Shown piece by piece: positions 751 to 63,564 of a DNA stretch of 64,000 bases. Each line of letters starts with the position of its first letter. Position 1 is the stretch's first letter. This DNA comes from Romanomermis culicivorax (lineage: Eukaryota; Nematoda; Enoplea; Mermithida; Mermithidae). The stretch lies in NCBI GenBank assembly GCA_963922205.1, contig CAWUHX010000004.1, positions 1,302,001 to 1,366,000 of the forward strand. The letters run 5' to 3'. Both the position numbers and the translations under genes were made by a program. The notes under the pieces were generated by a model. It did not search any database. It was not told the origin of the DNA and worked only from the letters and a program-made list of their open reading frames with translations.

Positions 751-1004
751 CACTTGAAAAAAATCGTTGGCAGTTGAAAAAATTTGTTACCATTTCAAAA
801 AAAAATCGTAACCTTCGAACAAGATGCACAACAGTTTTTCAAGATACATCGCAAAAATTTCAAGAAACTCGACAAAAATTTCAAGATGAATTACAAAAAA
901 ATCAAGATGTTAGAGTTGATGTTCCATTTTTTTCAAGTGCCTCACAATTTTTTACGTGCATCGCATGTTTTTCAAGATAAGCTTGACGAAAGTCAAGATC
1001 CCAT

Positions 1005-1130
1005 ATTGTAAAAATCAAGACCCTATCTTTAAAAAAAATCAAGATCGTATCTTAAAAATCAGGATCATATCTTAAAAATCAATATCATATTTTAAAAACC
1101 AATATCCCATCTTCAAAAAAATCAAGATGG
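1005..1130 (+). repeat. Minisatellite, about 20-bp unit
   Basis: Five to six degenerate direct copies of a unit like AAAAATCAAGATCATATCTT lie at the inner edge of the left arm of the foldback element. Local tandem growth of arm units is typical of foldback elements. Confidence 0.6.
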
Positions 1131-1296
1131 GTGACACATCAAAGGAAAAAAATTTCTGAAACTAGCCAATGAAAGGCGTTGCTCCGAATTTGTGAGGTCA
1201 AAGATTGCTAACGGAAGGGCGTCCTTAAGTTTACAGGAGTGGCAAAGCGGCAGTTTATTTCGCACAAAGATCGGATGGACATTAAACATACAGGCA

Positions 1297-1400
1297 TTTC
1301 AGAAAAAAAAATTTTTTCGAGATTTTTCAGAAAAAAAAAATTTTTTCGAGATTTTTCAGAAAAAAAAAATTTTTTCGAGATTTTTCAGAAAAAAATTTTT
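1297..1400 (+). repeat. Tandem repeat, 28-bp unit
   Basis: About three and a half near-perfect copies of a unit made of CGAGATTTTTCAG followed by an A run and a T run. The apparent open frame through it, rich in F and K, comes from the repeat and is not a gene. Confidence 0.75.
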
Positions 1401-2368
1401 TTGGAAATTTAAAAAAAACGTCAAAATTGCTTGCTTTTTACCCAAAATGCAGTAATTCCAGAAATTAATCAAAATTTTGGACCTCGCCGGCTCTGAGGGA
1501 ACTCGACAAAGAAAGAAAAATTTGGATCCTCTTCTGAAATTACTGCATCTCCGGAGAAAAGCTATCATTTTTGACGTTCTTCCGAATAATTCCCATAAAC
1601 AAATTTTTTTTTATAAAAACTATGTCCATCGGATGTAAAATAACCTTCCATCCTCTGCGACTCCCCCCGCCCCGTTGAAACTAAGGACGTCCTCCGCCAG
1701 CAAACATTGACCTCTGAAATCTTCTTTGAAGGGTTCCGGTCTTGCTTTGATGTGCCGCCCATCTTGATTTTTTTAAAGATGGCATAAGTTTGAGTCTAGA
1801 TTTTTTTCAGATTATCTTGAAAAACACGTGGTGCACTTGAAAAAATTGTGAGGCACTTGAAATGTTTGCAAAGCATCTTGAAATGTTTGCCATGTATCTT
1901 GAAAAAATTTTCTGCATCATGTTTGAAGGTAAGGATGTTTCTCAAGTGGTAACAACTTTTTTTCATCCTGTGTTTCTCATAATCTATACTTTTATCTGTA
2001 TTTCCTCGAATTATTCTAAATTTTTTAAATCAAGTGGTAAAAAAATGTTGAGAATAAATTATGGAACTTTTGAACAAACGTTTTAACAACTATCTGGGAA
2101 AATACAGATTTTTTGTGGATTCTGGACCAGTAAAAAAATGCATTTCAACAGTTGCACTTCACAGTTTTTATCCGATATAAAATGTCAAATACTATTGGCG
2201 AAAACATTTTTTTTCACTCTGCCTAAGATACTAAAACGAATTCTAATTTCGTATCAATTTTTGACCAGATATTTTTGAAATGCCTCTGAATCAGAGCAAT
2301 AATTATGATCTGCTAAACTTTTCGAACCATTTGTATATCAATTTCTACATTGAGAATTTATATCTTAC

Positions 2369-2667
2369 CGCAAATTTCCGATTATTTCAGAAACTTCGTC
2401 GCGGAAAATTTTTTTGCATGTAAAATTTTGTGGTAGAAAAGCCGTGAAATACAGAAAGAAATAAAACAAATCGGACAACAATAAATTGGTCAATAAAATA
2501 TAGAAAGAATATTTGGCATTTGTAGAAGCTTTGTACACGTTAATTGCAGCAGCGGTCACTAGAGAACAAGCGACAATATTCCACAAATAGAAAGCGGAAT
2601 AAGTCAATGCTACCAGAATCTGTTTGCGGCATTTAGAATCAGATTCATTTAGTGTAGAATTATCCAT
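2369..2667 (-). CDS. First exon of a rhodopsin-like (class A) GPCR
   Basis: The exon starts at an ATG and reads about 99 codons to a strong splice donor (GCG followed by GTAAGATA near 2369). The N-terminus has two N-glycosylation sequons (NST, NES). Residues about 18-42 form a first membrane helix and residues about 50-74 a second. The second helix carries LLTNLLLSDL, the N-L-x-x-x-D signature of class A receptor helix 2, and the conserved aspartate binds the structural sodium. The extracellular loop after it has NFTC, giving another sequon and a cysteine. The remaining helices should lie in exons at lower coordinates, but none was recognised within the window. Class A receptors signal through heterotrimeric G proteins at the plasma membrane. 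The ligand cannot be inferred. Confidence 0.7.
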
Positions 2668-5267: not shown

Positions 5268-5371
5268 TATTCTTCTTTAATGCTTCGACTTAACTAAATG
5301 CATGTTCATCTCCATTAGCTTGATACTAAGCTCCACCCACAACTGTAGCTGTTAGCTAGAAAAACGCCTCT
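5268..5371 (+). repeat. DIRS left inverted terminal repeat
   Basis: This 104-bp sequence starting TATTCTTCTTTAATGC is the reverse complement of 11449-11552 with only a few mismatches. Confidence 0.9.
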
Positions 5372-5439
5372 ATCGCATTGTCCATTTGAGCTCATGCTGT
5401 TAGCTTTTCCCTTTTTACTTTTCCTTTTCCGTTTTCAAG

Positions 5440-6563
<1,124 letters not shown>

Positions 6564-10048: not shown

Positions 10049-10288
10049 GGCCCACCTCGCCCACCCACATCAAAATTCTTTTTTAAGAATTCGAGGTAAT
10101 AATCATCACGCGGGTCCAGTTTCATTTACAATCACCAGTCGTTTCAACATCCCTAAGCGGAACGCCCATCTGATTTTGTAAACGGATTTTAATCAGATTT
10201 GTGTAACATGTTTTCAATTTCTCGTACAAGTGTGTATTCCTCGTTTTCCTTACTTACACATTGTAGCCATTATGCCTTTGTTTCTTTG

Positions 10289-11347
10289 ATTGTGTCCTTA
10301 TTCCCCAAACGTCTTCTTTCCCTGAAAGTCCAAATTCCCCAAAAGTCTCTATAACCCGAAGATCCTGATTCCCCGAATAATGAATAAAATTCCCTTTTCC
10401 CTGAACAATGCATTAGTACCTATTCCCCGAACGTCTCCATTCCCCGAATAGTAAAGGAATAATATTCTTGATTCCCTAAATTAGTAATAATATTAAATTC
10501 CCAATTCCCCAAAAACAATGAAGTATATAACTTCTTTGGAAGTTTAACTGTTTTCCAAACAGTAAGAACTGCATTTAAAAAAATTGCTTATAATAGCAAG
10601 AACTTTTTGGTAAATCCCCACCCCAGGGAATGAGATATAGCCATAAATCGTTTTCCTCATATGTCATTTATTTGCCACTGATATCATCCCAACAAGTACG
10701 AGACACAGCGTAAAAACAACTGTATATCAGGTAAAATTTGATTGAAATCACTACTGATTATTAAAGTTCTCTGCCGAACAAAGTTTCCTTCGCGTCCCAA
10801 TTTATCACAATTTCGGCATTCATAATAATCTGTAACTGTTCCATCTGCTGATCTAGTGGACTTATTTTTCTGGAAAAGATAAAAATAAGTGGGATTCACC
10901 ACACTTTCACACATCAGTAATTGCGATTTTCGATGTTTCATGAGAATAAATGTCACTTGGCCATAGTCTTCCATCGGGTAACAATAATTAACAACAACAG
11001 CTCAATAATTTTTTTTTGACAAGAATTCAAACTTCAAGGAGCTCACTAATTTCTACTATGGCATAAATTTTGTGTTAAGTTCCGTAAGGAAAATTTTTCT
11101 TGAACCATGGGAACATACCTACAATTTACAATGTTTTCTATGGAAAAATTTTCAATTTACAAAGTGCAATCTAAAAATGGTCTTCTTCTGTTTTCGGGAA
11201 AATGGGATTCGGCACTTTCGGGGAATAGGGACGTTGGGAGAAAAGGGAAAATCAGTGTTTGATTTATAGCATTCTATGGAGAAACGGGACTTTCGGGGAA
11301 TCGGGACATTTGGGGATAAGGGACATTCGGGGAATGGGGATACACCT
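10289..11347. mobile_element. Foldback-type element 2 (ATTCCCCGAA units)
   Basis: The left arm (about 10295-10510) has repeats of ATTCCCCGAA with spacers such as CGTCT. The right arm (about 11200-11345) has the inverted unit TTCGGGGAAT with GGGAC spacers. The ends TGTGTCCTTATTCCCC and GGGGAATGGGGATACACC are inverted relatives. GTTTCTTTG (10280-10288) and GTTTCTTTT (11348-11356) form a 9-bp target duplication with one mismatch. The element separates the internal complementary region of the DIRS element from its right terminus. Confidence 0.75.
10684..10974 (-). pseudogene. Possible zinc-finger fragment inside foldback element 2
   Basis: A 96-codon minus-strand frame fills the centre of the foldback element. 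It contains CESV, then YYECRNCDKLGREG followed by basic residues. A CxxC knuckle after a Y/F-rich segment resembles FLYWCH- or MULE-associated zinc fingers, but the match is by eye only. It may be a captured host exon or a remnant of the mobilising transposase. No partner frame is seen. Confidence 0.3.
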
Positions 11348-12937: not shown

Positions 12938-15900
12938 GTGTGTGGAAAATTAGTAGATTCTCTCACAAAAATCAAACTGCTAAAGGCAGAGAACTACACA
13001 CACAATTTTCAGCTTCCGATTTGATTGGCAGTGTTCCTGCCTCAAAATCCGGGGAAAATCAAAAAATTTTTGGGTCCAGGGCCCGGTTTGACCACAAAAC
13101 TCTGTATTAAGAGTAAAAGGTCACGAGTTACGAGTCCTGTGTTAAGAGAGCTAGAATGGCCGTCTGACCAAAAATCAGAGTTTATGAGCAAGGCATTACG
13201 AGTTTAGGAGTGCTACAAGTGGCCGTTCCACCAGAAAATAAAGTTTATGAGTATGGGCCCGAGAGTTATCAGTGTTACAAGCGACAGTTTTTTATAATTT
13301 ATGACTGTTCAGTTTGACCAAATGAGTTACCCATCATTATTATAATGAAAGGAATCATAATTTTGATGAGATTTTCATGGACCGAAATTTGGTCCGTACA
13401 ACTCGTAGCTTGGTAGTATTCGAGCATTCTTGTCAGTCATTTTTTTGCCAACCAGGCAAAGAAATGATAATTTGGATCGTTTTTCCGAAATTATAACATT
13501 TTGAGTGAAAAACAAGCATTTTTGCCATTTTCTTAAAAAACCAAAACAATAAAAAAATTTAAAAAAAACCAATATGTCCATTGGATTGCCCGGGCAAAAT
13601 AACCTCAAATGACCATAACAAATAGATTTCAAGAAATTGTGATCCACATAAAAAAAAGTTCAACATCGGAAAACTTTCAAACCTAGATTTTTTCGCCATG
13701 CACCTTGAAAAAATGTTGTGTATCAGGTTTGAAGGTAACGAATTTTTCAAGTGGCAACACATTTTTTCAAGTATTAACGAGGTTTTTCAAATGGCCTTTC
13801 TTGTATTCTGTATGAATTACTAACAAAAAACGAGTAATTCGCAAAGATTTAAAAAAGTTTGGCAATTTTTTTTGGCTGTTTTGAATAAAATTAACTTATC
13901 TTCACAATGATTTCTGTAAAATTGGCAAATTTTCAAAAGTGTGAGGAAAATGGTTTTCCATAGAGATTGAAAAAATTTTCGAAATTTTTATATATTTCAA
14001 CAAAATCTAACAAATTTTTACAAGAATGGAAAAAATAACTCATTTACTCCTAGAATTCAACACTCATAGTACTCATAAGACTCAACTTTGTGGTGAAAAC
14101 CGGACCCAGGAGCTTCTTTGGCATAGTCATTGGTGCTAAATGCTAATGGCACCATTGGCATTCACGTAGCCTTGGCTTGCGCCACAATGGTTTTAAAGTT
14201 TTTGAAACCTCTGTCTCCTTCAGTAAGATCAACGCTCAAATATTGTCTTCAGATTTGAATCTGATTTGCGTACCATTTTGTAAATTGTAGATATTAGTAC
14301 ATTCAGAATTAGCACATTCAGAAATTTTTTAAATTAAAAAATTTTTTAAATTAAAAAAAATTTTTAAACTAAAGAAATTTTTTAAATTAAAAAAATTTTT
14401 AATTAAAAAATTTTAAAATTAAAAATTTTTTAATTGAAAAAATTTTAAAATTTTAAAATTTAAAAATTAAAGAATTTATAAATTAGAAAAATTGGAAACT
14501 GAGAAAGTTTTAAAATTTAAAATTGAAAAAAATTACTCAGTATTAGTGGAATTTTGTTACAAATTTTCAGTTACATACAATTTCTGGCTGGGTACAAACT
14601 GTTCAAAATACAAAATAGTACTTGTTTGCCAGATTCATTATTTGGAAGCATTTCGAGAAAAACAGACTATACTGGGGCCAATTTACTTGTATGAAGAACG
14701 TTCACATGAGCTTATCATATGCAGGGTGTACATCGACTTCCTTCCTGCTATAAATATGATTTCACCTGTTAATGTCGACTGGAATTTCTCTAAGGTAAAA
14801 CACATACACGTTTGGAAACGATCTCATTTTTTCACAAGTGCTCCAAAGTTATCGCATTAAAATAGTAGTGCTGTTGAATTATGATATCTGTTCGCGTGAT
14901 ATGTTTTACAATACTTCAACTGCCTTTGGTCGAAGATCAGCTTTTTCCAGCCTCCTGACGACCCGAAATTTTTACCATTTTAAGGCGTACAAGTAAGCAG
15001 ATAAACAACCAGAATCTATCACATGAAAAAAAGGGGAAAATAGTCGGAAATTATCCTCAATGTCAGTAATGGCCGATATTTATTTTGAACGCCAAATCTT
15101 CATAATTACGATCAATGTCAGAGATTGTGAAAATCTGCTCCTGCCAATGTGCGGCCGAAATGCGGGTTGTCAAAATATACTTCAGCTAAAAATGTGCATG
15201 CGATCACATTGCAGGCCGCATTTGGATATACTTAACCGTACATGTATAGATATGAGGGAGGGGGTCTTTCTCCCCCTCATTCCCCCCCAACTTTAACCCC
15301 CCCCCCCAATTTTTTGGAAAAAATGCGAGAAAATCGCGTTTTTTTCATGTTTTTTAATCGAAAAACCGTACATGGACCCCCCCCCCCCCCCCGAGGACCG
15401 GCTGACCCCCCCAACCCCGGCCTGGCCGAGGTTATTATATGTATGATAGGATGACCCAAGCAAGTGGGGGTTCCTACGGCACTCCTCCCCCCACATGTAT
15501 GACATTGCATTTTAAAACGCGCGAGCCACAGTAGCCATGTATTTTCTGCCCACAATATTTTTCGAATTTTCGACCTTGCATCCAAAAATCTTTTTCCCCA
15601 CTTGGGAAACAGTCCAAAGTTTTTTCCCCATTTTAGAAAGAGGTTAACAATATCCGCATCCGATCGCATCACACCAACGGGGGGGGGGGGGCACAAAAAT
15701 CAAGTACAATCGTGTGCCATGAGCAAAAAACAATACTTTACTGTACTGGCAGCAGTGGTTACTGATCGGCATGAATTACTGATGTGAGAAAAAGTAGAAA
15801 TGGCTTCTAATTGCGCACACGCGCAACATTATTGGGTTCCCCACAAACTTTTCGCCTGACACTGGCAACATGGCTCACGATTGTTTTGTCCAATTTCTGG

Positions 15901-24900: not shown

Positions 24901-27900
24901 ATGGGAAAGGGTAGGGAGGAACGAAGCTTCGTGGACATCAAATTTCTTCATCTGATCAATAATTAGATCAAAATTTATATATAAATTTTATAAAATTCAT
25001 CAAATAAATTTAAAAAACGACTGAAATTTTTTTCGGTCAAAAGGCAGGTCTGTTAGCATAATGTGGACACACTCAATGTACGGCCTTCATAATCTTAATG
25101 TCTACAAACTCGGACATGTGAGTGAAACTTTCATATTTAATTTCTAATTTTTGTACATCTGATCTAGTTTTCAGCATCGTGCAACAGGTTAATTGCAAAG
25201 TCTGGATAAACACACAGGAAACAAAGTAGTCCTAATATTTGCAAAATTCGTCAAATAATTGATCAGATTTTTAGCTTGCAATGATGATAAGAACCACATA
25301 TTTTGTTACAAAAATTTGCTGCGATTTTCTGAATGTTTTTTAGTGACATATTGAACATAACATTGAAGCCACATTGTCCACAAGCAATCACATCCAGACC
25401 TTACAACAACAATGTTGTACTTATTTTTGTGTAATGCAGATACATTTGAATCATAACAAAACTGACAGACTGACAAAACTGAACTTTTTAATCTAGTGCT
25501 ATTTGTGGAGTAAAAAAAACACAAAACTTATATCATGCATTTTTTATTAAGTTCTTCCACATAACTGGATGGCGATTGGAGACGACATGCAAACTCACTG
25601 TCAAAAGAATATCAGTGTGGATGGAATTTTCCCTATAGCAACTTTCAGATGGAGAAAAATGCCCTATCCGAGTGATAACTATTATCGATTTTACGATGGT
25701 GGACATTCTGCGATTTTCTTGGGTTGCTCAAAAGCAGGAGCAGCTTTTGTAAGCTTTAGGCATTAAAAATGGCATTTTCTTATAATGAATTGTATTCAGG
25801 TGGCTGATCAATGGTGCGAATCACCATTCGGAGTTAGATGGCTGGATAGTGGGGATTTGATTCGATATTTTGAAATTGGATCTTTCAGGAGAAATCCATA
25901 TCAAAGGGCCGTAATCCATGGTATCCAAGAAGTTGCAAAAAGTTTTCTTGTAGGACTCGCTCAGAGGGTCCAAGATCTCATTGAAATCCATGGAAATGAA
26001 AATTATATGGTACGGCCTGTGGTGAATTGGCAAATTATACAAGAATCAACTTGTTCACCAGAGTTCTCAGGTCCTTTTAGAGAAGAACAAATTATGCCAC
26101 ATTTAGGTAAATTTCTACATTAACTTTGTGGTTGAGAAGCTACTAACGACCTGTGCTCACATCTTGATATCACTCTTTATGTGTTAGCCATTTGTCATAT
26201 TTTCCTTTATAGTATGATACAAAAACATCACTGCAGCACTGGTGTTATCTGCTCGAATTAAATGACCTTACCTGCTGACAATTTAGAGTAAATTATTGCC
26301 AAGGGCTCATGGAGCCTCAGCCACCATGTTATTTGAGCCACCATTGCATTTTAGTCAACGTCTCAATTGAGTGTTATGTTTAAATCCCTGCTTAAGATCC
26401 AAAGACATCCACAGTATCACTAGAAAGTTCTGTTGGCTGGTATCCAGCCAATTACTGTAGGTCACTCAAAGGAGCTTCCCATAAGTAACCAGCTGAACAC
26501 AGTGCAACAGTTCTCTAGAAAAATTAAACACAACCTTCAGTCACTAGTCAGTAACTGAAATAATTAACTGTTGCAATCGAACAGCAATCAGGGTTGCCCC
26601 AGATGCTTCCTAAAGGCCAATGCGAAAACACAAAGCACTCAACCACCATAATGTCCAAGAAAGGCTGGGTCCTATCTTGGTATTAAGTCCTAGTGATAGG
26701 CGCCCTCCTCCACTAAATGGGCAAGAATATAATAATAATAATGAATAATAAATAGAATATTATTCAACTGAGTTGTGACTGTCGATGTTCCACTTTATTG
26801 GGCCGAAGCAAATACAATTATAATGTTTATAGATGTGACTTGCTCACAACCCAAGAAAGTATAAGGAACGATAAATCATTTTTTCTCGGTCGAAATGTGG
26901 CTTCACCCAATTCACAATTTTTCATACATGTGAGAAGACTGCTATCATAAATACATCCCCAACTTGAGCCACTGTATGTTACGTATACATATATGTACTA
27001 GTGATAGGGAAAATCCAGTTTATGTAGTTTCCAAACCCAATTCCGGATCTGAATCCAGGAAATTAGTAAGTACGGAATCCAAATCTGACATTTAGGATTC
27101 AGGCCAATCTGAATCCTACATTAATTTTTTCCAAATCAAACGCACACCATTCATTATTAATTAGGTTAATGTAATTATTTTACTCCAACATATTTATTTT
27201 ATAGAAGTAGGGTTTCTTTGCTTCTAGCAGTTAAGGACTGGAGTAGAAATTTTTTTGATGCTTTTCTGCGCAGAGCAGAAAAACTATGGGATAGAAATTT
27301 CAAAAAGCAAAGCTCAACATTGAGCTGCAACTTGAAGAGCATATATTGCTAGTAGAAAATTTAGTATCAATTGCGAGTTAAAACCTAGAAATAATGGTTT
27401 GAGAGGCGAAATAGGCAGAATTTGATTGAAGAAATCAATAAAATCAGACATTCGGGATATTATATATTAATGTACATTTAAATGTGGAATGTAGATCAGA
27501 CAGGACGTGTTATTTTTTATGTTAATACATATCAGAAGAGGTCGGTTTGCTTAGTCTTATTTGTTTATGAACTAAATTATTATTACGTTTTTTGCAGCTT
27601 TATGAAAGTACCCATTTTTTGACATTTTTTGAAATTTTTTTCAGTTTTGAAAAGCTATTCACTCAAGAAACTTTCAGCACTGTGCAAAAATTATGCGTTA
27701 CAGGTTCTAACTTCTAACCTTATGATTGAATACTTTGTGATACATTACTCATTAAACATACTTAGGCTATGTCTTTGAGGCATAATCATTGAATTATATC
27801 TCTTCACATTTATCATAAAGTCCCAGTCTATTGCCTATCGATATTGTTATGATGGCAGTAATATATAGGTTTTACTAGATAGTTTTACTGAATATGTAAT

Positions 27901-39900: not shown

Positions 39901-42900
39901 CATTTCATTTGTGGCACCATACAAGGGCACACTATGCAGCGCCTGGTCTATTCCCAATTGAGTGAATTCCCAATTGAATGAATTCCCGACTGAGTGAATC
40001 CCAATTGAGTGTTTTCCAAATGAGAAAATTCCCAATTGAGCGATTCTCATGCGGTGAATTCCCAAATGAACTAACTTCCAATTGGGGGATTACAATTAAG
40101 CGATTGTGAATGCAATAACACTTCTTGATATCTTCGTTCCCTACTTCATATTTTTATTTGTATGTATTTCTTTTTTGATTCATTTTCTGGGTGTGTTGTT
40201 AATGTTTTCATTTATGTATGTTTTAACGTCTCTACTTTCTTTCATTTCTTTAGTCTGTACTTTCTTTCATTTTTTTTCTTTCTTGCTCATGAAATAACAC
40301 ATGACAGGTTGTCATTTTGAATGGCTATAGTTTCCTGCATGATTCTGGTACAGTTCGACATACTTGAGTCTTCCATAATTGCCATCATTGTAAGTGTGAA
40401 AATCTTTCTAAAAGACATAAACAAAAAAATGCTGGAAGGAACAGAGCATCAAGAGAAAGGAAATGTCAATAAAAATTAATACCTTCAAAATAAGTGAAAG
40501 TAGGTGGAAAAGCATTAGAAAAAGAAAGAAAACATTTAAACAGTGACAAGAAAGAAGAAGCTGCATAGAAAAGGTAGCAAGGAAGAGAGAAAAGAATGTG
40601 AAAAAAGAAGAAAAAAGAAAGAATCATGAGAGCTTGAAAGCCAAAAACTAAGATGAAAAGGGACGAAGAAAGGAATAAAGAATAAATTATAGAGGAAACA
40701 GAGGGTGCCAAAATGTAAAAGAATTATATGGAAGACAGCGGTTATTAAAAATGACAACTTGTAATGTATTGTTTCATGAAGAAAAAAAGTAGATGAAAAG
40801 AAAACTAAAATGGTGGAAAGCAGAGACAAAAGATGGAAATGCCAAATCATACATAAATGAAAACATTGAAAATACACATAAAAACAAAAGAAATAAGAAA
40901 TACATACAAAAAACGAAGGGGAAAAGAAATACACACAAAGAAAAAATATAAGGTAAAGAAGAAAAATATGAAGAAAGTTTTAATACATTCTCGATCACAT
41001 GTTTGGAATTGCCAATTGGAATTGGCTCATTTGCAAATTCACTCAATTGAGAATCGTTCAATTGGAAATTGCTCCTGTGGGAGTCGCTCACTTGGGAATT
41101 GGCTTCACTTGGGAATCACTCACATGAGAATACCCACTGTGATCTACTGCATGCTCATTTTTTTCATTTGGATGTTAGATCTGTGTTGTACTGTAATGCC
41201 CAATTAAGGGATTTGTCTGCTGAGGATTCTAATATACTTTTGCTTGACAAATGCAATCTAGACCTTCAACAAAATCCAATAATGGAACAGAACACGATAT
41301 GAAACAATAACAAAAATGCGATGACAACTCCGGAATTCCAAACAACACCAAAACAATTCCCAAATTGTAGTAAAAACTAACTGACTGCAACGATTTCAGA
41401 ATTCAACACGAAAACTAAAAAACTCTCCCTTCCTGATCATGCTTTGCTTTTTATACTGCTTCTTTAAATCCCACCTTTAGGCCATGGGGGGCCCCGCTTC
41501 TGTTTCGCTTTTTCTAACCAATCACTGCTTTGCCTCCCTTTTAACTTGACGGGCTTCTGTTTATCTATGCTTCATTTGCACGCCTACATGCTTTAGTTTC
41601 GGTATTATTTATTACCACACCTACATGCTTTAGTTTCTATGCTTCACTGTTTCCATGTGTTCCACTTGAGTCTTGCATCTGGGTCGGGGTTTTGCATTTT
41701 CTTACATGAACAGGTGATTTAAGACTTTGGGATACTGTATTTCTTGGGAATGTGCATCTTCATGTGACTCGAGTGGATTATAAAACCAGGTGCTGATGTG
41801 TAAAATTATTATGCAATGATTCCTAATTGGGTTACTTATGGATTCTGGTGCAGGAACATTGAAAACAAAGTACTTATACAATACTTGAGAAAAATGTACA
41901 GGATCGTCAACAAGGTGAATAACCACACAAACTCGAAAATACTTCACGAAAAAATGAAATTACGTAGAGTAGTACGATCTACATATTATGTATTATGAAT
42001 TTACATTAAGTCTTATCACTTATCTTACAATACTCAGGCAAATTTAGAGCAAATAATTTTCCAATGCATGTCCCAACTTTATACAAAAATTTGGATTAAG
42101 TTCATATAGTTGACATGTTGGTAGACAAACTGCGATTTGTATCCTTTACTGGACACCTTTTAGTCCTCAGTTCCGAAATTACTCATTAATCGAACTTCTG
42201 CTCCTCTTTCTTTTAGTGCATGCTTTGAATCAGAGATGCTGCAAGCAAGCATAACTATAGCATTGACTCCGATTCTGCCTTATTGTGAACACCATCCCTC
42301 TTCTTTGAGGGCCTTTTCAAATTATCTGCTGATGTGTGGCATAAAAATTGTATTCATTACAGATCCTCCACCCTTATCTGCTAGCTACAGAGAGGTGTGC
42401 TACGCAATAGCTGATGCACACCATACAAAGCTGTTTTGGCAGAACTTTAATGGTGAAATGCATTATGAAAATGTGACGATTCAATTATACAGGAGTATGA
42501 AGTGTGATTTACGACTGAACGTAGTATGGAGAGAAAAAGTTTACAAAACAACGTTCGGAGCCACAAGTTAGTTAATCCATTACATTATGGGATTGTTGAA
42601 TAAATCCTCGTTTTTCAGATATCAAAGTTGAAGAACAGAATATGAATGATAAAATATGCATGGGGTAAGAAATTTAATTTTAGGTAGATATCAGTGGAAG
42701 ATCAAATTTTTTAAGGCCGGATGCTGTCATCATTTGCTTCACTCTTCACCAGCAACAAAGCACCAACATGGGTTGTCTCACAGCTACACTGCATCTAAGT
42801 GTAATGCAGAGACACAGCTTTGACTTTTATTCCTTGTTGACAAACCAGAATGTTCACTTCAACTCATGTCCTCTCCATTGCCTAGTGGTATGAAAATGGA

Positions 42901-43528: not shown

Positions 43529-43871
43529 GACCATGGGAACTGTTTCAGTCAATTTTGAGAAAATCAAAAAACAAATAAAAGGGCGTAAAGAGATTTTCAA
43601 GGGCTTTCGAATAAGCTATAAAATCATCTTCCTATCTTAAATATTGCCAAAATCAAATGAGGCGGCATTTTTTTCTCCGTAGATTGTAAACAAGTCCTAA
43701 ACAATACCTTCAATTTAAACTGTTTTATAGAGTACGAAAATTTATCTAATTTCCTTTCCAAAACTATTTGTATTATTTCTGTACATGCAACAGGTCAAGA
43801 GATTCTGGCGTTCAAAGTTGGGGGCATCACTTTTTTGGTCAAACATAATATAGTACGCGCTGTGGCAGGAT

Positions 43872-44889
43872 TGGGTAGCAGATCTGCTACCTAGTGCACA
43901 TCGGCTACTTAATGTACGAACCCTGGCTAGTGCACATCCGTTACCATAGTCAGATCTGCTACTAGACAGCAAAAAACGTGAAAAAAGTTTTCCTATTGTT
44001 TTCATAAGGGCTTTCCGAAGACAAAAGAATAAAAGAAAATGGAATACGGTAGGCATTCTGCGTGGTAAAAAATATTTTGTTTGCCACTTTTATGGAACTG
44101 CAAGAATGGTTAAGAAACGTAATACTACAGGGAGTCTACCTAAAAATAAGTCACTAATGAGTAAAGATACATAATAAAATGAAAAAAATGTCCAGGCAAC
44201 CACATTCTAATGTGTGAAAAATTCTTATTTACATAACCAAGTGACCACACAAGCACCTCGAGTGACAGAACAATCAGCCTAGACCGAAGTTTTTCATTCT
44301 TTACCTGTACCAATCGGGGTGATGAAAATATCGTTTTCATTTTGTTTTTTTAATTTTTTTCAAATACTTTTTAAAAGTATTTTATCATTTTTAGTTCAAA
44401 ATTTAAAAAAAACTATTGTTGGAAATACCTCCCGCGTAGACCAAGGGCTGATTATTTTCAGCAAATGTGGATCCATGGCAATTATCCCATTTCTATCGAA
44501 AATTATTGGGATAACCCTGCATTTAGAACAACAAACCCCTGCATCTCACCGGGATTCGTGGCACGCATTTGGCAGAACACAATTTCTTGCATTTACTTCT
44601 GAAAATACAGGGGAATAGAAAATTTTGAATCCCATCCGTTGCAACCGCATATTCCCAATTTTTAACCAATGAAATTTTTTATTTTCATGATACATGCACC
44701 ATCTAATTGGTAAAAAAATTAAATGAGCCTAATAATTTGTAAATGTGTACTGTACATTCTTCCATAATGAAATCCTGCCCAGGCTATTCAACGCACAAAG
44801 TAAATGTAACGTGTTACTTATATACCTCAGCAGAAAGTAGCAGATGTGCACTAGGTAACAGATCTGGCACCGACCCCTGGTGCGCTACT
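43872..44889. mobile_element. Foldback-type element 7 (CTAGTGCACATC units), copy 1
   Basis: Left units CAGATCTGCTACCTAGTGCACATC and variants (43872-43975) are inverted at 44838-44889 (AGCAGATGTGCACTAGG, AACAGATCTG). The centre is non-coding. Confidence 0.75.
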
Positions 44890-45970
44890 TTGATTTTCAA
44901 GCAATGTGGAGCAAATCACTTAGAGAACTATCCAATAGCATAACAATTTTGCATTAGATGATAAATTGATAGTGAAGTCCTCTATGATGACAAGCGAGAG
45001 CCCAAAAAGACAAAAAAGACATTGACTTTATCTGGCACCAAGCACCAGAAAATTTTTTGGGTACCAACTGACATTTGGGGACACTAGAAAATCAATTTTC
45101 TAAATACATTTCACAAATAAGATTAGAACTTTGTGTTCAGAAGTCGTAAACTTTAGAATTTATTATTTGAAAAATTTTAAAAGAACCAGTAATTTATTTA
45201 ACTCTCATGAACTTGGCCAAAAAGATATGAGTGGAAGAGTAGAAATTTCCAAAAACTACTACCAGAGCGTCCCAAGTTCATTTTATTTTGAAAGGAATAA
45301 TCCCTTAAAAAATTTCAGATACTTGGTGTGTCTTTTTTAAAGAATGTTTGAAGGAAAAACTGCAGATCTCCATTTAGTATCAAGATGAATTATTGAAGAC
45401 TACCACTTAAAACATGAGATAATACATTTGTTATGATGAAAACTATTATACGTTGAATGATAGGTGAAGGCAGACATCCTGAAAGCCATATCTGACCTAG
45501 GCAGTACATATCAATGATTAAATTGAAAAAGGCGCAAAGCGTTGGAAATGTTGAAATTATGAACTCCTAAAATGCATATTTTCTGCATGTTATCCCCAAA
45601 ATTTTCTTCCCTAAATGGGGATAGAGCCGTTTGTACATGTCCAAATGACTACCTCAATTTTGTTTGCCACCAAAAATTTGTATTTGCCTCTGACAAAAAA
45701 ACACTGCTTTGATTGGAAAGCAATGACTTTTTCTACATAGGTGACCTATCTATATATTAGAAAATATATCATTGTGTATCTGCACTAGTTCTCTAGAATC
45801 TAGGCATATTTAGCATCCACTGTTTCTTTTCTTATTGTGGACAATGTCGAATTGTTCGCAAGGGTACTTGTGTAACAATAATCCCGCAGTACATCACATT
45901 ACTGCTGATACTGATTCCTGAATAATCCAACAGCTCGCACCCAAAAAGCTACCAGAGAACCTAAAGGCAG
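44890..45970. other. No gene recognised
   Basis: Non-coding sequence between two foldback elements, conserved with 59990-61070. Confidence 0.4.
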
Positions 45971-45971
45971 A

Positions 45972-46630
45972 TTCATACTTCATTGCACGTTGGACATCTG
46001 GCGTCAGGCAAATTATTTTTAGCTTCCGGCATTCAGTGTCAGGCGTCGGGCATTCAGTGTCTGGCATCTGGCAATTTGGCTTCCAGTAAGTTACTGGATT
46101 GAATGGCAATTCATACTTCTTACAGCGCCAGAAAGGTGGGATGACAATTTATTCTTGATTTTACTTTGTTTAATAGTTCGAAATCTGTTCGATATTTTTT
46201 TCAAGAGAAATGGGCATATGAAATATATATAAAAAATTATTTTTCAAGTCTACTCCGATTTATCAGTTGATGATGTCAGATGAACAATATATTCTTGATC
46301 TAGCATTTTTTAATGCTTTCAAGACTGGAAAAAACATTCAAAATATTCAGCAATCAAAAATTAAACAAACGTCATGATTAAAAACACAAAATTTTACCTC
46401 AACTAAAAAATCAATATCCCACATACGTTGTATATGCAAAAGCCAATTAAACACGTGGTTCTATTGAAATTACCTACAAAAATGCTTTGCAGCATCCGAA
46501 AAGTACAAACTGTTTCTAGGCAAAATTCCAGTCTTGTGGCAAGAAAATGGGAGGGCAGATGAAAAATCTAAAAATAGATTTTTTTGGACGATGCTGGATG
46601 GGTGATGCCTGATGCTGGATGAAGTATGAA
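45972..46630. mobile_element. Foldback-type element 8 (GGCATCTGGC units), copy 1
   Basis: The terminal inverted repeat is TTCATACTTCAT. Left units GGCGTCAGGC, GGCATTCAGTGTC and GGCATCTGGC (45990-46085) face GATGCTGGATG and GATGCCTGATGC at 46590-46620. The second block lacks about 104 bp of the left arm. Confidence 0.7.
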
Positions 46631-47000
46631 ACCGGCCTTCACCCAATGGTCCTCATAAAAGTCGGGAATGTGAGACGCGGCTACAGAAGGATATATGTCA
46701 AATATGAAGCCATTAAACAGTCTATAAATAAACACCCCACTTTACTGATATAAAATAACAATAACAAAATATCGGGCGGCTCACACAAAATAAACATAAA
46801 TTATGAGAGAATGATCATCACAAGTCAAATACTAGCTTTTTAGGCAGTCGTGCCCCAGGTAATGACGCCTTCTTGCTACTTTCACAATTTGCATGGATGG
46901 TATGCCTGCTACTGTAAGTACATCTTCAACACAATCAAGGAACCATATCGCTGCAATGCTATATCAAGTCGGCGACTGTAGGATGTAGTGTGAAGCAGCA

Positions 47001-48002
47001 AGGTTCTAGGACAATTCACCCCCAGTAATTCGACCCCAGCAATTTGTCCCCCACAATTTCGCCCCTGTTAATTCGCCCCCCCATTGCAGTTCGCCCCCGG
47101 GCAATTTGCCCCCAACACAATTTTGCCCTCGAGTAATTTGCTGCTGGTACAATACTTACCAGGTTTTAGATTTAAAAGTGACTCCATGATATGTTACTCC
47201 AGACATTTCCCCTATTAGGTAATCATCTTTTGATCTCCTTTGTGTTTCACATAAAAAAAATAATATATACACATATACACATATACACATAATATAAACA
47301 CATTACAAACATAAAAAATAAATAAAAAAAATAAAAAAAAACAAAAATAACCACAAAGAATAACCAAAATAACAACAAAAAAAGCAACTCCATGATATGT
47401 TATGTAATGTCACTCCAGAGATTTCCCCTATTAGGTAACCATATTTCATGTGAAACATAAAGGAGATAAAAACATGATTTTTCACTTCGCCCCTGTCACC
47501 TCGGTTTTCATTTTTCACTCTTTTTTACATTGTCCTTTTTCTTTTCTTTTCTAGTTGCACACATATTTTCTTTTTTTAAACTTCATTTCTTGTAACTTTC
47601 TATCGGAATCTATGGAGAGCCATTAAGATTATGACAAAGCATCACAATTATTCTACGTGTGACTCTATTGTGTTCTTCACTATCTTTTTTTGTGACAACT
47701 TCGCGGTGTACCAAAAATAAAAAAGAACAAAAATAGAAAAAACAGAAGAAAAATATTAAAAAAAATAGAAAAGGAGAATGAGTAAGAAGTGATCAAAAAA
47801 AATATAGAAGAAGAAAACTATTCTAGAAGGATGAAAGACATAAAAGAGGAACACAAGAAAGAAAATTAAACGAAAAAAGGAGCAAAAAACATTAAAAAAA
47901 CAAGTCTAGATCGGGGAACATAGATGACTTCGCAATTCTGCTTATGATATCCGTGTTATATGTTAAAATTCCTGCGTAAATTTTCTCGGGTATTCACGCC
48001 GT
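47001..48002. mobile_element. Foldback-type element 9 (AATTCGCCCCC units), truncated by the gap
   Basis: The left arm (47012-47150) holds AATTCGACCCCAGC, AATTCGCCCCC and AATTTGCCCCC units and is preceded by GAAGCAGCA (46992-47000). The element is cut at 48002 by the N run; its complete counterpart is 62006-63555. Confidence 0.8.
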
Positions 48003-48102
48003 NNNNNNNNNNNNNNNNNNNNNNNNNNNNNNNNNNNNNNNNNNNNNNNNNNNNNNNNNNNNNNNNNNNNNNNNNNNNNNNNNNNNNNNNNNNNNNNNNN
48101 NN
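48003..48102. other. Assembly gap of 100 N
   Basis: Exactly 100 unknown bases, the conventional size for a gap of unknown length. The two 15-kb homologous blocks meet here. Confidence 1.
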
Positions 48103-48868: not shown

Positions 48869-49076
48869 GTGAGTGATATCCCGTATTGGGCATGTGTTTA
48901 CCAATTGTGCTGGTTAAGCTAGCAAGAGAATTATCATATGTGCCCATTTTTTCCAAACTTTGAAACAAAAGTGATGCTCAGCTCCACTATTTTTCTATCG
49001 CCTGTATAAAAGTCATTAACATGCTAACCCACCTTCAGTTCACAGGAGTTCAGAAATTAGTCCTGAATCCGTGACT

Positions 49077-50325
49077 GGACTTTAGAGCATGGGACCATAC
49101 AGTCCAGACATTAGAGCATGAACATTAGAGTGCAGGGACATTAGAGCCCATGACATTAGAGTGCATGACCTTAGAGCACAGGGTATTACAGTGCAGTACA
49201 ATAGAGCACAGGGATGTAAGTGTGCAGGACAGTTGAATTAGGGCAGTTGAATTACAGTGTAAGACAATAGAATGCAGGGACATTAGAGCCCAGGACATTA
49301 GAGTGCAGGGATATTAGAGTGCAGAACAATAGGACCCAGGACCATAGAGCACAGGGGCATTATATGGCAGAGACATTAAAGTGGAGGACTATAGTGCACA
49401 CAGACAATAGAGCACAGGGCAATACAATGTAAGGACATTAGAGTGTATGGTCATGAGTGTGCAGGGACATTTGAGAGCATTTGGAAAACTGATTTTTTTT
49501 GGCCAAAGATCTGTAATGAATGCAAACTTTGAATTGTTTTCGAACATGAAAAAATTATTAAGCATGCAGATTGATTTCAAAACCTGTAAAGAAACTGTAT
49601 TTGTCATTCTGAAGGTGAATTAGAAATTCAAGATGAATCCGAAAATAACACATTGAAACGATTTGAGTCACAGGCTTAAAGGTAAAATATTTGCTATTTC
49701 TTGTGTTTTTCTCACTTTTTGAAAGATTTACATATCCCATCTTTTTCTTAAGAACTAGGACAAGCATTGATTCTACTGTTTATGTAGTCACAAAGTGTTT
49801 TTTCGAATGGATCAGAGGTAAATCCCATATGAGCCACTGGATAAAAAAGTATGAGTAGTGAGAAAGTTGACAAACAATGAGACATAAAAAGAATAAATGA
49901 AAAAACACAAGAAAATGAAAACAAAGGGAAAAATATTCCATAAAAAATAGGAGACAGAATAAGTAAGATAAGTGAAATAAAAAAAGAAAAGGGAAGAAAG
50001 AGAACAAAACCTTGAAAATACCCAATGGCAGAAAAATGATTGGACCTGAACTTCTCCAGAGTCATGAAAAAATGTGAAGCAGGCATTTTTTAGCTGAAAT
50101 GCAGTGATTTTTCAAATTATTTTATTAATGGGCTTTTTCATTTTACTTTGATCTAGTGTTTCGGGGCTCTAATGTCATGTGCTGTATTGCCTCTGACAAT
50201 ATATTGTCTTGGGTTGTAATGTCTCTGTGCTCTATTGTCTTAAGCTCTAATGTCCCTGGGCTCTATTTACCTGCGCCCTAATGTCCCTGCACCTTATAGT
50301 CCTGTGCTCAAATGTCTCAGCACCT
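49077..50325. mobile_element. Foldback-type element 5, copy 2
   Basis: Same inverted ACATTAGAGTGCAGG and CTCTAATGTCCCTG arms as 34085-35325, with some units changed. Confidence 0.8.
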
Positions 50326-57989: not shown

Positions 57990-57993
57990 AATG

Positions 57994-58925: not shown

Positions 58926-59989
58926 GCACGATTGGGTAGCAGATCTGCTACCTAGTGCACATCCGCTACCTAGTGTATGAACGCTGGCTAGTGCACATCC
59001 ATTACCATAGTCAGATCTGCTACTAGACAGCAAAAAACGTGAAAAAAGTTTTCCTATTGTTTTCATAAGGGCTTTCCGAAGACAAAAGAATAAAAGAAAA
59101 TGGAATACGGTAGGCGTTCTGCGTGGTAAAAAATATGTTGTTTGCCACTTTTATGGAACCGCAAGAATGGTTGAGAAACGTAATACTACAGGGAGTCTAC
59201 CTAAAAATAAGTCACTAATGAGTAAAGATACGTAATAAAATGAAAAAAATGTCCAGGCAACCACATTCTAATGCGTGAAAAATTCTTATTTACATAACCA
59301 AGTGACCACACAAGCACCTCGAGTGACAGAACAATCAGCCTAGACCGAAGTTTTTCATTCTTTACCTGTACCAATCCGGATAATGAAAATATCGTTTTCA
59401 TTTTGTTTTTTTAATTTTTTTCAAATACTTTTTTAAAGTATTTTTTCATTTTCAGTTCAAAATTTAAAAAAAAACTATTGTTGGAAATACCTCCCGCGTA
59501 GACCAAGGGCTGATTATTTTCAGCAAATGTGGATCCATGGCAATTATCCCATTTCTATCGAAAATTATTGGGATAACCCTGCGTTTAGAACAACAAACCC
59601 CTGCATCTCACCGGGATTCGTGGCACGCATATGGCAGAACACAATTTCTTGCATTTACTTCTGAAAATACAGGGGAATAGAAAATTTTGAATCACATCCG
59701 TTGCAACCGCATATTTCCCAATTTTTAACCAATGAAATTTTTTATTTTCATGATACATGCACCATCTAATTGGTAAAAAAATTAAATGAGCCTAATAATT
59801 TGTAAATGTGTACTGTACATTCTTCCATAATGAAATCCTGCCTAGGCTATTCAACGCACAAAGTAAATGTAACGTGTTACTTATATACCTCAGCAGAAAG
59901 TAGCAGATGTGCACTAGATAGTGGATATGACTATGGTAGCAGATGTGCACTAGGTAACAGATCTGGCACCGACCCCTGGTGCACTGCTT
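58926..59989. mobile_element. Foldback-type element 7, copy 2
   Basis: The right arm has one extra repeat unit (GATAGTGGATATGACTATGG plus flanking bases) compared with copy 1. Confidence 0.75.
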
Positions 59990-61069
59990 TGATTTTCAAG
60001 CAATGTGGAGCAAATCTCTTAGAGAACTGTCCAATAGCATAACAATTTTGCATTAGATGATAAATTGACAGTGAGGTCCTCTATGATGACAAGCAAGAGC
60101 CCAAAAAGACAAAAAAGACATTGATTTTTCTGGCACCAAGCACCAGAAAATTTTTTGGGTACCAACTGACATTTGGGGACACTAGAAAATCAATTTTCTA
60201 AATACATTTCACAAATAAGATTAGAACTTTGTGTTCAGAAGTCGTAAACTTTAGAATTTTATTATTTGAAAAATTTTAAAAAAACCAGTAATTTATTTAA
60301 TTCTCGTGAACTTGGCCAAAAAGATATGAATGGAAGAGTAGAAATTTCCAAAAACTACTACCAGAGCGTCCAAATTGGTTTTATTTTGAAAGGAATAATC
60401 CCTTAAAAAATTTCTGATACTTGGTGTGTCTTTTTTAAAGAATGTTTGAAGGAAAAAATGCAGATCTTCATTAAGTATCAAGATGAATTATTGAAGACTA
60501 CCACTTAAAACATGAGATAATACATTTGTTAAGATGAAAACTATTAGACATTGAATGATAGGTGAAGGCAGACATCCTGAAAGCCATGTCTGACCTAGGT
60601 AGTACATATAAGTGATTAAATTGAAAAAGGCGCAAAGTGTTGGAAATGTTGAAATTATGAACTCCTAAAGTGCATATTTTCTGCACTTTATCCCCAAAAT
60701 TTTCTTCCCTAAATGGGGATAGAGCCGTTTGTACATGTCCAAATGCCTGCCTCAATTTTGTTTGCCACCAAAAATTTGTATTTGCCTCTGACAAAGAAAC
60801 ACTGCTTTGATTGGAAAGCAATGACTTTTTCCACATAGGTGACCTATCTATATATTAGGAAATATATCATTGTGTATCTGCACTAGTTCTCTAGAATCTG
60901 GGCACATTTAGCATCCACTGTTTCTTTTCTTATTGTCGACAATATCGAATTGTTCGCAAGGGTACTTGTGTAACAATAATCCCGCAGTACATCACATTAC
61001 TGCTGATACTGATTCCTGAATAATCCAACAGCTCGCACCCAAAAAGCTACCAGAGAACCTAAAGGCAGA

Positions 61070-61626
61070 TCCATACTAAGTTACTGGATTGGATGGCAAT
61101 TCATACTTCTTCCAGCACCGGAAAGGTGGGATGACAATTTATTCTTGATTTTACTATGTTTAAATACTTTGGAATCTGTTCAATATTTTTTTCAAGAGAA
61201 AGGGCATATGAAATATATATATATATATATAATTATTTTTCAAGTCTACTCCGATTTATCAGTTGATGATGTCAGATGAACAATATATTCTTGATCTAGC
61301 GTTTTTTTAATGATTTCAAGACTGGAAAAAACATTCAAAATATTCAGCAATCAAAAATTAAACAAACGTCATGATTAAAAACACAATTTTACCTCAACTA
61401 AACAATGAATATCCCACATACATTGTATATGCAAAAGCCAATTAAACACGTGGATCTATTGAAATTACCTACAAAATATGCTTTGCAGCATCCGAAAAGT
61501 ACAAACTGCTTCTAGGCAAAATTCCAGTCTTGTGGCAAGAAAATGGGAGGGCAGATGAAAAATATAAAAATAGACTTTTTTGGACGATGCTGGATGGGCG
61601 ACGCCTGATGCTGGATGAAGTATGAA
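61070..61626. mobile_element. Foldback-type element 8, copy 2, left arm deleted
   Basis: The right arm (GATGCTGGATG, CCTGATGCTGGATGAAGTATG) is kept. The left arm is reduced to CCATACTAAGTTACTGG. The deletion runs almost exactly through the left-arm repeats. Confidence 0.65.
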
Positions 61627-62005
61627 CCCGCCTTCACCCAATGGTCCTCATAAAAGTCGGGAATGTGAGACGCCGCTACAGAAGGATATAAGTCGAATAT
61701 GAAGCCATTAAACAGTCTATAAATAAACACCATTTGGCCGCCCCACTTTACTGACATAAAATAACAATAACAAAATATCGGGCGGCTCACACAAAATAAA
61801 CATAAATTATCAGAGAATGATCATCACAAGTCACATGATAGCTTTTTAGGCAGTCGTGCCCAGGTAATGACGCCTTCTTGCCACTTTCACAATTTGCATG
61901 GATGGTATGCCTGCTACTGTAAGTACATCTTCAACACAATCAAGGAACCATATTGCTGCAATGCTATATCAAGTTCGTGACTGTAGGATGTATCATGAAG
62001 CAGCA

Positions 62006-63555
62006 GGTTCTAGGACAATTCACTCCCAGTAATTCGACCCCAGCAATTTGTGCCACACAATTCGCCCCTGGCAATTCGCCCCCATTGCAATTCGCCCCCA
62101 GGCAATTTGCCTCCAACACAATTCGCCCTTGAGTAATTTGCTGCTGGTGCAATACTTACCAGGTTTTAGATTTAAAAGTAACTCCATGATATGTTACTCC
62201 AGACATTTCCCCTATTAGGTAATCACCTTTTCATCACCTTTGTGTTTCACATAAAAAAATAATATATACACATATACACATATACACATAATATAAACAC
62301 ATTACGAACATAAAAAATAAATAAAAAGAATAAAAAAAATAACCACAAAGAATAATCAAAATAACAACAAAAAAAGCAACTCCATGATATGTTATGTAAT
62401 ATCACTCCAGAGATTTCCCCTATTAGGTAACCATATTTCATGTGAAACATAAAGGAGATAAAAACATGATTTTTCACTTCGCCCTGTCACCTCTGTTTAC
62501 ATTTTCACTCTTTTTTACATTGTCTTTTTTCTTTTCTTTTGTAGTTGCACACATATTTTCTTTTTTAAACTTCATTTCTTGTGGGATCTATGGAGAGCAA
62601 TTAAGATTTTGACAAAGCACCGCAATTATTCTACGTGTGACTCTATTGTGTTCTTTACTATCTTTTTTTGTCAACTTCGCGGTGTACCAAAAATAAAAAA
62701 GAACAAAAATAGAAAAAACAGAAGAAAAATATTTAAAAAAATAGAAAAGGAGAATGAGTAAGAAGTGATCAAAAAAATATAGGAGAAGAAAACTATACTA
62801 GAAAGATGAAAGACAAAAAGGAGGAACACAAGAAAGGAAATTAAACGAAAAATTAGCAAAAAAAATTTAAAAAAACAAGTCCAGATCGGAGAACATAGAT
62901 GACTCGCAATTCTGCTTATGATATCCGTGTTTTATGTTAAAATTCTGTGTAAATTTTCTCGGGTATTCACGCCGTCAGACTAAAATTTGGCATGGTTTCT
63001 GGGGATTAGGGCATCATCATTACAAACTCGAAAAAATATGTATTAGTAAATTGGCAGTGTTGAGATTTTTTACACATTTTTGGTCGAAATTGATCATTTT
63101 CAGTCAGTTAAACTTTAGTCGCTAGCCTTCGTTTTAAACTCGAAGCCACATATTTTGTTTCAAGTGGAAAAAAACTGATTACTTCATATCCAGGGAACTA
63201 CTACTCATACGCCTGTATCGCTGACCGTACGAGCAAAAAAGGCTTCTACTGACTCAGCACTAACCGCACCAGTGAAAAAATCTCATTTTCAAAGAAAATT
63301 TAAAAAAAAATAGTTTGTGGTCCTTTATTTGGGACATTGCTGTGGATCTTTTTCTTCTTGTGCATAATACTTGCACTCTGCATGCAGAATTCATAAATAA
63401 ACATGATATTTCGGCTGGGAAAAATCACTAGGTTTTGTCCATGGATGTGTAGAAATGCTATCTGAATTTTTCAAATTAAAAAACAGTGAATTGGGACCAG
63501 TTACTGGGGCCGAATTGCTGGGGGCGAGTTACTGGGGGCGAATTGTCCGTATCCC
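62006..63555. mobile_element. Foldback-type element 9, complete, 9-bp target duplication
   Basis: The left end is GGTTCTAGGACAATTC and the right end, read inward, GGGATACGGACAATTC. Left-arm units AATTCGCCCC(C)AGG/AGC face GGGGGCGAATT and TACTGGGGGCG at 63490-63550. GAAGCAGCA flanks both ends (61997-62005 and 63556-63564), a perfect 9-bp duplication. The centre has purine-rich non-coding sequence. No transposase. Confidence 0.85.
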
Positions 63556-63564
63556 GAAGCAGCA

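What the first reader, a model, noticed from the sequence alone, without database searches (positions are those of the whole stretch)
751..63564. Many foldback elements sharing architecture but not sequence
At least nine inverted-repeat elements (751, 10289, 13071, 27001, 34085, 39950, 43872, 45972 and 47001/62006, with copies in the second block) are roughly 0.65-1.55 kb with an A/T-rich non-coding centre. Most have outer arms of short tandem units, inverted between arms. The units are unrelated: ATTCCCCGAA, ACATTAGAGTGCAGG, CCCAATTGAGTGAATT, CTAGTGCACATC, GGCATCTGGC, AATTCGCCCCC. The same plan with so many sequences suggests one mobilisation or arm-amplification mechanism acting on diverse termini.
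Basis: partly seen in the sequence, partly recalled or inferred. Interest (0 to 1): 0.8.

Follow-up and report, generated by a model that had tools for sequence, protein, structure and literature searches.

The report
Old foldback transposons, several Mutator-like
This stretch of genome holds about a dozen decayed 'jumping gene' remnants, several with mirror-image arrays of short repeats at their ends; at least three look like members of the well-known Mutator/Foldback group, and the apparent second set of copies is most likely an assembly overlap.

Summary
Six of nine reported elements (E1, E2, E5, E6, E7, E9) have inverted arms that none of 300 shuffles reach and a tandem period above the shuffle maximum in at least one arm. 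E3 and E4 are weak and without a clear period; E8 is marginal. The 'copies in the second block' are probably not independent: 33080-48002 and 48103-62975 align end to end at 96.8% substitution identity and abut the only N gap, as overlapping haplotype contigs do. Three families with unrelated units (E2, E5, E9) carry exact 9-bp target duplications, first seen by eye. These and the 14-17-bp spacing fit Mutator/Foldback elements; E9's ends (9-bp duplication, 7-bp non-inverted tip, GGA, units about 14 bp) match the layout of nematode Tm1. One transposase superfamily plausibly explains three families; it is not shown for the rest. No transposase appeared in the 29 of 127 ORFs scanned. The genome is not held, so copy number is untested; in the window only E1 has another, partial copy. 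Arrays as multiplied binding sites is inferred. New members of a known kind.

The parts
745..1976 (.). E1: foldback element, arms of 20/21-bp units (TTTCAAGATACATCGCAAAAA-like), candidate 7-bp target duplication TCATAAT
   Evidence: arm score 169, 0 of 300 resampled; period 20/21 in both arms; TCATAAT, null 0.20
10288..11346 (.). E2: foldback element, 17-bp units (ATTCCCCGAAAGTCC-like), apparently inside a reverse-transcriptase-bearing retroelement
   Evidence: exact 9-bp duplication TGTTTCTTT on both sides; arms 0 of 300; period 17 in the right arm, left arm 3 of 300
13078..14112 (.). E3: weak inverted ends, no tandem arms; holds a fragment of an E1-family element at 13457-13796
   Evidence: 4 of 300; E1 similarity
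27000..28086 (.). E4: weak inverted ends with GGATTCAGATCTGAATCC-like words; hAT-like look by recall only
   Evidence: 2 of 300, direct orientation scores higher; no significant period
34075..35327 (.). E5: foldback element, 26 left and 9 right units spaced mostly 15/16 bp (ACATTAGAGTGCAG-like)
   Evidence: exact 9-bp duplication TCCTGAATC; spacings; 0 of 300
49070..50324 (.). E5 in the overlapping second contig, same target duplication
   Evidence: TCCTGAATC on both sides; block alignment
39948..41133 (.). E6: foldback element, outer 15/16-bp units (ATTCCCAATTGAGTG-like) plus an inner inverted domain; target duplication unresolved
   Evidence: arm score 269, 0 of 300; alignment; spacings; duplication tests negative
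43866..44880 (.). E7: foldback element with 18-bp units (CTAGTGCACATCTGCTAC-like); target duplication unresolved
   Evidence: 0 of 300; period 18 in the left arm; 36-bp arm difference with the other contig
45964..46639 (.). E8: weak foldback element, ends with TTCATACTTCAT; left arm lacks 108 bp in the second contig at 61077
   Evidence: 4 of 300; left-arm period 21, 2 of 300; indel
62006..63555 (.). E9: foldback element, units spaced 14-16 bp (CAATTCGCCCCCAG-like), Tm1-like end layout
   Evidence: exact 9-bp duplication GAAGCAGCA; tips GGTTCTA and GGGATAC, then GGACAATTC at both ends; 0 of 300
47001..48002 (.). left part of E9 in the first contig, cut off by the contig end
   Evidence: block alignment and N run
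48003..48102 (.). 100-N scaffold gap between two overlapping contigs
   Evidence: only N run in the window

Best explanation
These are old, non-autonomous cut-and-paste DNA transposons of the foldback type. At least three families (E2, E5, E9) most likely belong to the Mutator-like (MULE/Foldback, Phantom or Tm1-like) group: a transposase not seen in this window cut them out and joined them to staggered 9-bp target cuts. Proposed working (inferred): each array unit is a copy of the transposase-binding word near the tip; many spaced copies give a weakly specific transposase enough grip to pair the ends, and unit number drifts by recombination between units. Unit sequences differ because each family has its own transposase lineage or binding specificity. 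Shown: inverted arrays, 9-bp duplications in three families, arm differences between two overlapping copies. Inferred: transposase identity, binding role, direction of the arm changes. The remaining elements are a mixture; E6 may be a fourth member (by spacing only), while E3, E4, E7 and E8 may belong elsewhere.
For: Exact 9-bp duplications in E2, E5 (both contigs) and E9; 1.96% of 19,824 random zone pairs hold an exact shared word of 9 or more, so 3 of the 9 named elements has a binomial chance of about 6e-4 (my arithmetic; the words were first seen by eye). Random position pairs reach the same anchored end score in at most 0.05% of 4,000 draws; within the same zones 5.3% (E2), 5.3% (E5), 1.1% (E5, second contig) and 8.1% (E9) of offsets do. 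Spacings: E5 right arm 15,16,15,16,15,16,47,16; E9 right arm 14,14; E2 mostly 17. E9's outer 7 bp match in 2 of 7 positions, the next 19 in 17; E5 in the second contig 3 of 7, then 14 of 19. A masked blind scan for a 9-mer beside an inverted 16-bp end finds E9 and E13 among 4 hits. Published parallels: Tm1 with 9-bp TSDs, 7-bp asymmetric tips, GGA and 13-15-bp units; Muta1 with 12-bp units and 3-4-bp spacers, and 10 of 12 long-TIR MULE families of Aedes with short sub-terminal tandem repeats; Galileo THAP domain binding to sites inside tandem repeats.
Against: No DNA transposase in the 29 stop-free ORFs scanned with Pfam (9, 10, 10) of 127 of 70 or more residues in the first contig; 98 were not scanned. 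In the blind scan E2 appears only at 10 of 16 matches (14 hits in the first contig, shuffle mean 9.15) and E5 only in the second contig at 9 of 16 (17 hits, shuffle mean 11.45), so neither stands out without knowing where the arrays end. The step at bp 8 is unclear in E2 (9 of 19 ungapped), and E5 in the first contig gives 6 of 19 ungapped. The word GGAC[AG]ATTC with one mismatch allowed occurs at 25 places in the window, three of them E9 ends. Target duplications are unresolved for the other six.
Confidence: 0.68

Rival explanations
1. All nine elements were moved by one transposase lineage that tolerates any unit sequence (strong form of the first reader's idea).
For: Shared plan and 14-18-bp spacing in E2, E5, E6, E7 and E9; 9-bp duplications in three.
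Against: E1 has 20/21-bp units, E3 and E4 have no clear period, E8 a marginal one of 7/21 bp; no exact 9-bp duplication in six of nine; end words of E3/E8 and E4/E7 look different (and sequence, by eye).
Confidence: 0.1
2. Foldback form arose convergently in different superfamilies: Mutator-like for E2, E5 and E9, others (hAT, PIF/Harbinger or P-like) for E3, E4, E7 and E8. This is compatible with the best explanation and differs only for the unclassified elements.
For: Different ends: E7 CAGGATTGGG against CAGGGGTCGG, E8 AAGGCAGATTCATACTTCAT against AAGGCCGGTTTCATACTTCAT. Galileo is a published P-superfamily foldback. The hAT and Harbinger likeness is recalled, not tested.
Against: No 8-bp duplication abutting the ends of E4 or E7; duplications of 2-3 bp were looked at by eye only.
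Confidence: 0.5
3. The 9-bp elements belong to another group with 8-9-bp duplications (P/Galileo, Merlin or Rehavkus).
For: Galileo has long TIRs with tandem repeats; Rehavkus has 9-bp TSDs and a minisatellite before its 3' TIR; Merlin is recalled.
Against: E9 fits the Tm1 (Phantom MULE) end layout element by element, except the unit sequence.
Confidence: 0.15
4. The arms are ordinary minisatellites that became inverted by host recombination, not transposon ends.
For: Arm length varies between the overlapping copies.
Against: Target duplications at three elements; E1 has a second partial copy whose similarity runs to within 4 bp of the proposed outer end.
Confidence: 0.04

Closest known systems
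Tm1, Mutator/Foldback family of root-knot nematodes (PMC3169594; passages seen)
   Same: 9-bp TSD, 7-bp non-inverted tips, GGA, then 13-15-bp tandem units inverted between ends; mostly non-autonomous
   Different: Unit sequence: Tm1 CGATTCAGTATCCGC against E9 CAATTCGCCCCCAG (C-ATTC in common, by eye); no transposase seen here; purine-rich Motif D not tested
Muta1 and other MULE families of Aedes aegypti (PMC5225508; passages and section 7 seen)
   Same: 8-9-bp TSD, long TIR with 12-bp units and 3-4-bp spacers (15-16-bp period, as in E5 and E6); many families in one genome with such repeats; non-autonomous copies vary in unit number
   Different: Active autonomous copies there; a 10-bp palindromic tip there, not looked for here beyond reading the ends
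Galileo (P-superfamily foldback of Drosophila; PMC3688188 and PMC3573991; passages seen)
   Same: Internally repetitive TIRs whose repeats contain transposase-binding sites; TIR length changes by unit number, arm by arm
   Different: Repeat units of about 210 bp in the F group of D. mojavensis; different superfamily
Tetris of D. virilis (PMC4079207; passages seen), and FB elements of Drosophila
   Same: Three-part TIR with a tandem outer domain, variable centre, TSD of 8-10 bp (Tetris)
   Different: About 220-bp units in Tetris; FB unit lengths are recalled, not read
TU elements of sea urchin
   Same: Recalled: 15-bp tandem outer domain with heterogeneous centres
   Different: Nothing read; one query (at least 4 of 5 terms) listed one paper with no occurrence of the name

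Membership tests
Mutator-like / Foldback (MULE) | Target duplication of 8-11 bp | tested here: met
   Exact 9 bp in E2, E5, E9 (3 of 9 named elements); not resolved in the other six
Mutator-like / Foldback (MULE) | Long TIR with composite tandem units | tested here: met
   6 of 9 elements with a period and inverted arms above the controls; E3 and E4 not, E8 marginal
Mutator-like / Foldback (MULE) | MULE transposase in an autonomous partner | tested here: inconclusive
   None in 29 of 127 window ORFs; whole genome not held
Tm1 (for E9) | 7-bp asymmetric tip followed by GGA | tested here: met
   Both ends of E9
Tm1 (for E5) | 7-bp asymmetric tip followed by GGA | tested here: inconclusive
   Left GGA, right AGA; 3 of 7 tip positions match
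Tm1 (for E2) | 7-bp asymmetric tip followed by GGA | tested here: not met
   TCC and CCC in place of GGA
Tm1 (for E2, E5, E9) | Unit with core CGATTCAGTATCGC | tested here: not met
   E9 unit CAATTCGCCCCCAG; E2 and E5 differ further, compared by eye
hAT (for E4, E7) | 8-bp target duplication next to the TIR | tested here: not met
   E4 TATACATA does not abut the TIR; the E7 word lies inside the arm
One family for all nine | Shared unit sequence | tested here: not met
   Seven unit consensus words (none was made for E3 and E4), 21 pairs, smallest shuffle fraction 0.030

The most novel reading that the evidence does not exclude
End geometry is conserved while unit sequence is free: one MULE (Tm1/Phantom-like) lineage kept the 9-bp cut, a short non-inverted tip and units at about 1.5 helical turns (14-17 bp), but replaced the recognised word wholesale in each family (E2, E5, E9, perhaps E6), so that several families with mutually exclusive specificities coexist in one genome.
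Probability: 0.22. Interest if true: 0.5.

Novelty: new member of a known kind. Interest (0 to 1): 0.3.

Why it matters
If several families in one genome share the cut length and end geometry but not the recognised word, they are a natural series for asking how a transposase and its multiplied binding sites change together. The assembly point matters too: counting the second block as copies would double the apparent copy number.

Tried and rejected
Common helical spacing for all families: rejected, since periods are 14-16, 17, 18, 20/21 bp and none. Shared unit word: rejected. E6 target duplication predicted from the 7+3 layout: best edit distance 3 in 9 offset pairs, null 2.5% for each pair, so not significant. 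Blind scan for a 9-mer beside an inverted 16-bp end: the first run left the TTAGGC-type arrays unmasked (12 of 14 first-contig hits were array) and its output was cut; I repeated it masked. At 11 of 16 matches it gives 2 hits in each contig (shuffle means 1.40 and 0.50), among them E13 and E9; E2 and E5 need laxer thresholds, where hits are not above the shuffles. Relatives in IMG/VR by short patterns: 17 loci from two of four patterns; none shows an array of nearby units, and L002 has one short inverted pair; by eye L001 and L002 are phage- or bacteria-like. A zinc-ribbon-like stretch in E2 (10687-11001, minus) stayed below the Pfam cut-offs (TFIIS ribbon E 0.0027, RYYR-CCHC E 0.005) and gave nothing firm in PDB sequences (best E 0.076): a lead only.

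Not done: read depth at the overlap, genome-wide copy counts, the other 98 ORFs, reading Marquez and Pritham on Phantom (not held).
Full report
Setting. No whole genome is held for this window. It is 35.9% G+C, has no Rfam match at gathering scores and no ARAGORN tRNA. It carries decayed retroelements: RVT_1 at 7175-7633 (E 2e-11), a sub-threshold RVT_1 match at 6641-7171, and sub-threshold RVT_1 and integrase zinc-binding matches on the minus strand at 21312-21767 and 20523-20990. TTAGGC-type arrays lie at 8849, 43237 and 58236. TTAGGC is, from memory, the nematode telomere repeat; the species was not identified.

The second block. Positions 33080-48002 and 48103-62975 align end to end: 14,252 of 14,722 aligned columns are identical (96.8%), with 64 indels; BLAST identity with gaps is 95.7% and 92.7% in its two pieces. 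The only N run in the window, exactly 100 bases, lies at 48003-48102: the first copy ends at it and the second begins at it. Two contigs that overlap at a scaffold gap give this pattern; published work describes haplotype contigs placed next to each other as an illusion of segmental duplication (PMC2864568, passages). I therefore read the second block as the other haplotype, and the elements there as alleles. Depth was not testable. No element in the overlap is present in one copy and absent in the other (longest indel 108 bp), so the insertions are older than the 3.2% divergence.

Are the inverted arms real? Against 300 resampled left arms each, E1, E2, E5, E6, E7 and E9 are reached by none; E3, E4 and E8 by 4, 2 and 4. 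An unsupervised search of the first contig found 21 inverted pairs in nine places where 20 resampled sequences gave none; it did not recover E2, E3, E4 or E8 at its threshold. It also found E10 and E11, with arms of about 180-200 bp and no tandem period, and E13.

Are they tandem? In 12 of 20 arms the best period exceeds the maximum of 60 shuffles; they belong to E1, E2, E5, E6, E7 and E9. With 300 shuffles, E2's left arm is reached by 3 and E8's left arm by 2. Unit counts: E5 26 and 9, E6 8 and 9, E9 7 and 3, E2 8 and 5, against shuffle means of 0.15 to 1.6; E9's 3 right units equal the best of 200 shuffles, and the E7 word is found only 2 and 1 times. E5's right arm alternates 15 and 16 bp, and its left arm does so over part of its length. 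Unit sequences of the seven families compared are not detectably related.

Target duplications. Within 53-bp zones around ends picked by eye, E2, E5 and E9 share an exact 9-mer (TGTTTCTTT, TCCTGAATC, GAAGCAGCA), which 1.96% of 19,824 random zone pairs do. Each lies directly outside ends that align with each other at anchored scores of 9 to 13, which at most 0.05% of random pairs reach, though 1.1 to 8.1% of offsets inside the same zones do. E5 keeps its duplication in both contigs. E13 has CAATTATA(G), 8 or 9 bp. E1 has 7 bp. E4 has an A/T-rich 8-mer that does not abut; E7's 8-mer is inside the arm; E8's 7-mer and E11's mismatched 9-mer have no inverted end beside them; E3, E6 and E10 have none. 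A masked blind scan brings up E9 and E13 among its 4 hits at 11 of 16 matches; E2 and E5 come up only at laxer thresholds, where hits do not exceed shuffles. Their case rests on the arrays marking where to look.

End layout. In E9 the outermost 7 bp are not inverted (2 of 7), then GGACAATTC follows at both ends and 17 of 19 positions match. E5 in the second contig shows the same (3 of 7, then 14 of 19); in the first contig the ungapped count is 6 of 19. E2 is unclear (2 of 7, then 9 of 19 ungapped). The Tm1 family of root-knot nematodes has a 9-bp TSD, asymmetric 7-bp motifs, GGA, and 13-15-bp tandem units (PMC3169594, passages). Muta1 of Aedes has 12-bp units with 3-4-bp spacers, and 10 of 12 long-TIR MULE families there have short sub-terminal tandem repeats (PMC5225508). 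Hence the plan 'same architecture, different sequences' is, as I read those passages, already on record for MULE families within one genome.

How it may work. Galileo's THAP domain binds sites inside its tandem repeats, and the authors propose that many sites give specificity (PMC3688188, passages). I infer the same role here. The two largest arm differences between the overlapping copies are 36 bp in the right arm of E7 (two units) and 108 bp in the left arm of E8. In E7 the longer state looks ancestral, because its extra inner unit resembles the left arm; in E8 the longer state matches the partner arm. Both are therefore read, by eye, as deletions. Gap columns per aligned base are 0.043 inside E5-E8 (144 of 172 columns from those two indels) against 0.017 outside.

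Copies. Inside the window only E1 has another copy outside the overlap: E3 contains an E1-family piece (13457-13796), with the outer end at 76-83% identity and a shorter arm. The 12 elements were each searched against the rest of the window; besides E1/E3, the only rows were E7 and E11 against their own overlap region.

Verdict. A real and dense set of old foldback transposons; three families fit the Mutator/Foldback group, one of them with Tm1-like ends; the rest are unresolved. New members of a known kind, modest interest.

Noticed in passing
33080-48002 and 48103-62975: Two contig ends overlap by about 15 kb at 96.8% substitution identity across a 100-N gap: probable haplotypic false duplication in the assembly.
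   Followed up: partly
8810-9237: E13: short element with 36-bp inverted ends (97%), 8-9-bp target duplication, a (TTAGGC)n array and a tRNA-like stretch (by eye) inside; apparently within the retroelement.
   Followed up: partly
5268-11601: Decayed retroelement with inverted repeats (5268-5417 against 11403-11552; 9974-10048 against 11524-11598) and an RVT_1 domain; looks DIRS-like from memory. E2 and E13 appear to be inserted in it.
   Followed up: no
29170-30046: E10: 180-bp inverted arms without a tandem period, whose loop holds a tRNA-derived SINE-like stretch (about 29344-29790, by eye).
   Followed up: partly
31093-33350: E11: inverted arms of about 200 bp around 1.9 kb, no tandem period, no target duplication; two ORFs in or beside it gave no Pfam match.
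   Followed up: partly
10687-11001: Minus-strand ORF in the centre of E2 with weak zinc-ribbon / RYYR-CCHC similarity below the Pfam cut-offs; possibly a relic of a transposase DNA-binding domain.
   Followed up: partly
43237-43528 and 58236-58586: Long GGCTTA (TTAGGC) array with a 54-bp indel between the overlapping contigs.
   Followed up: no
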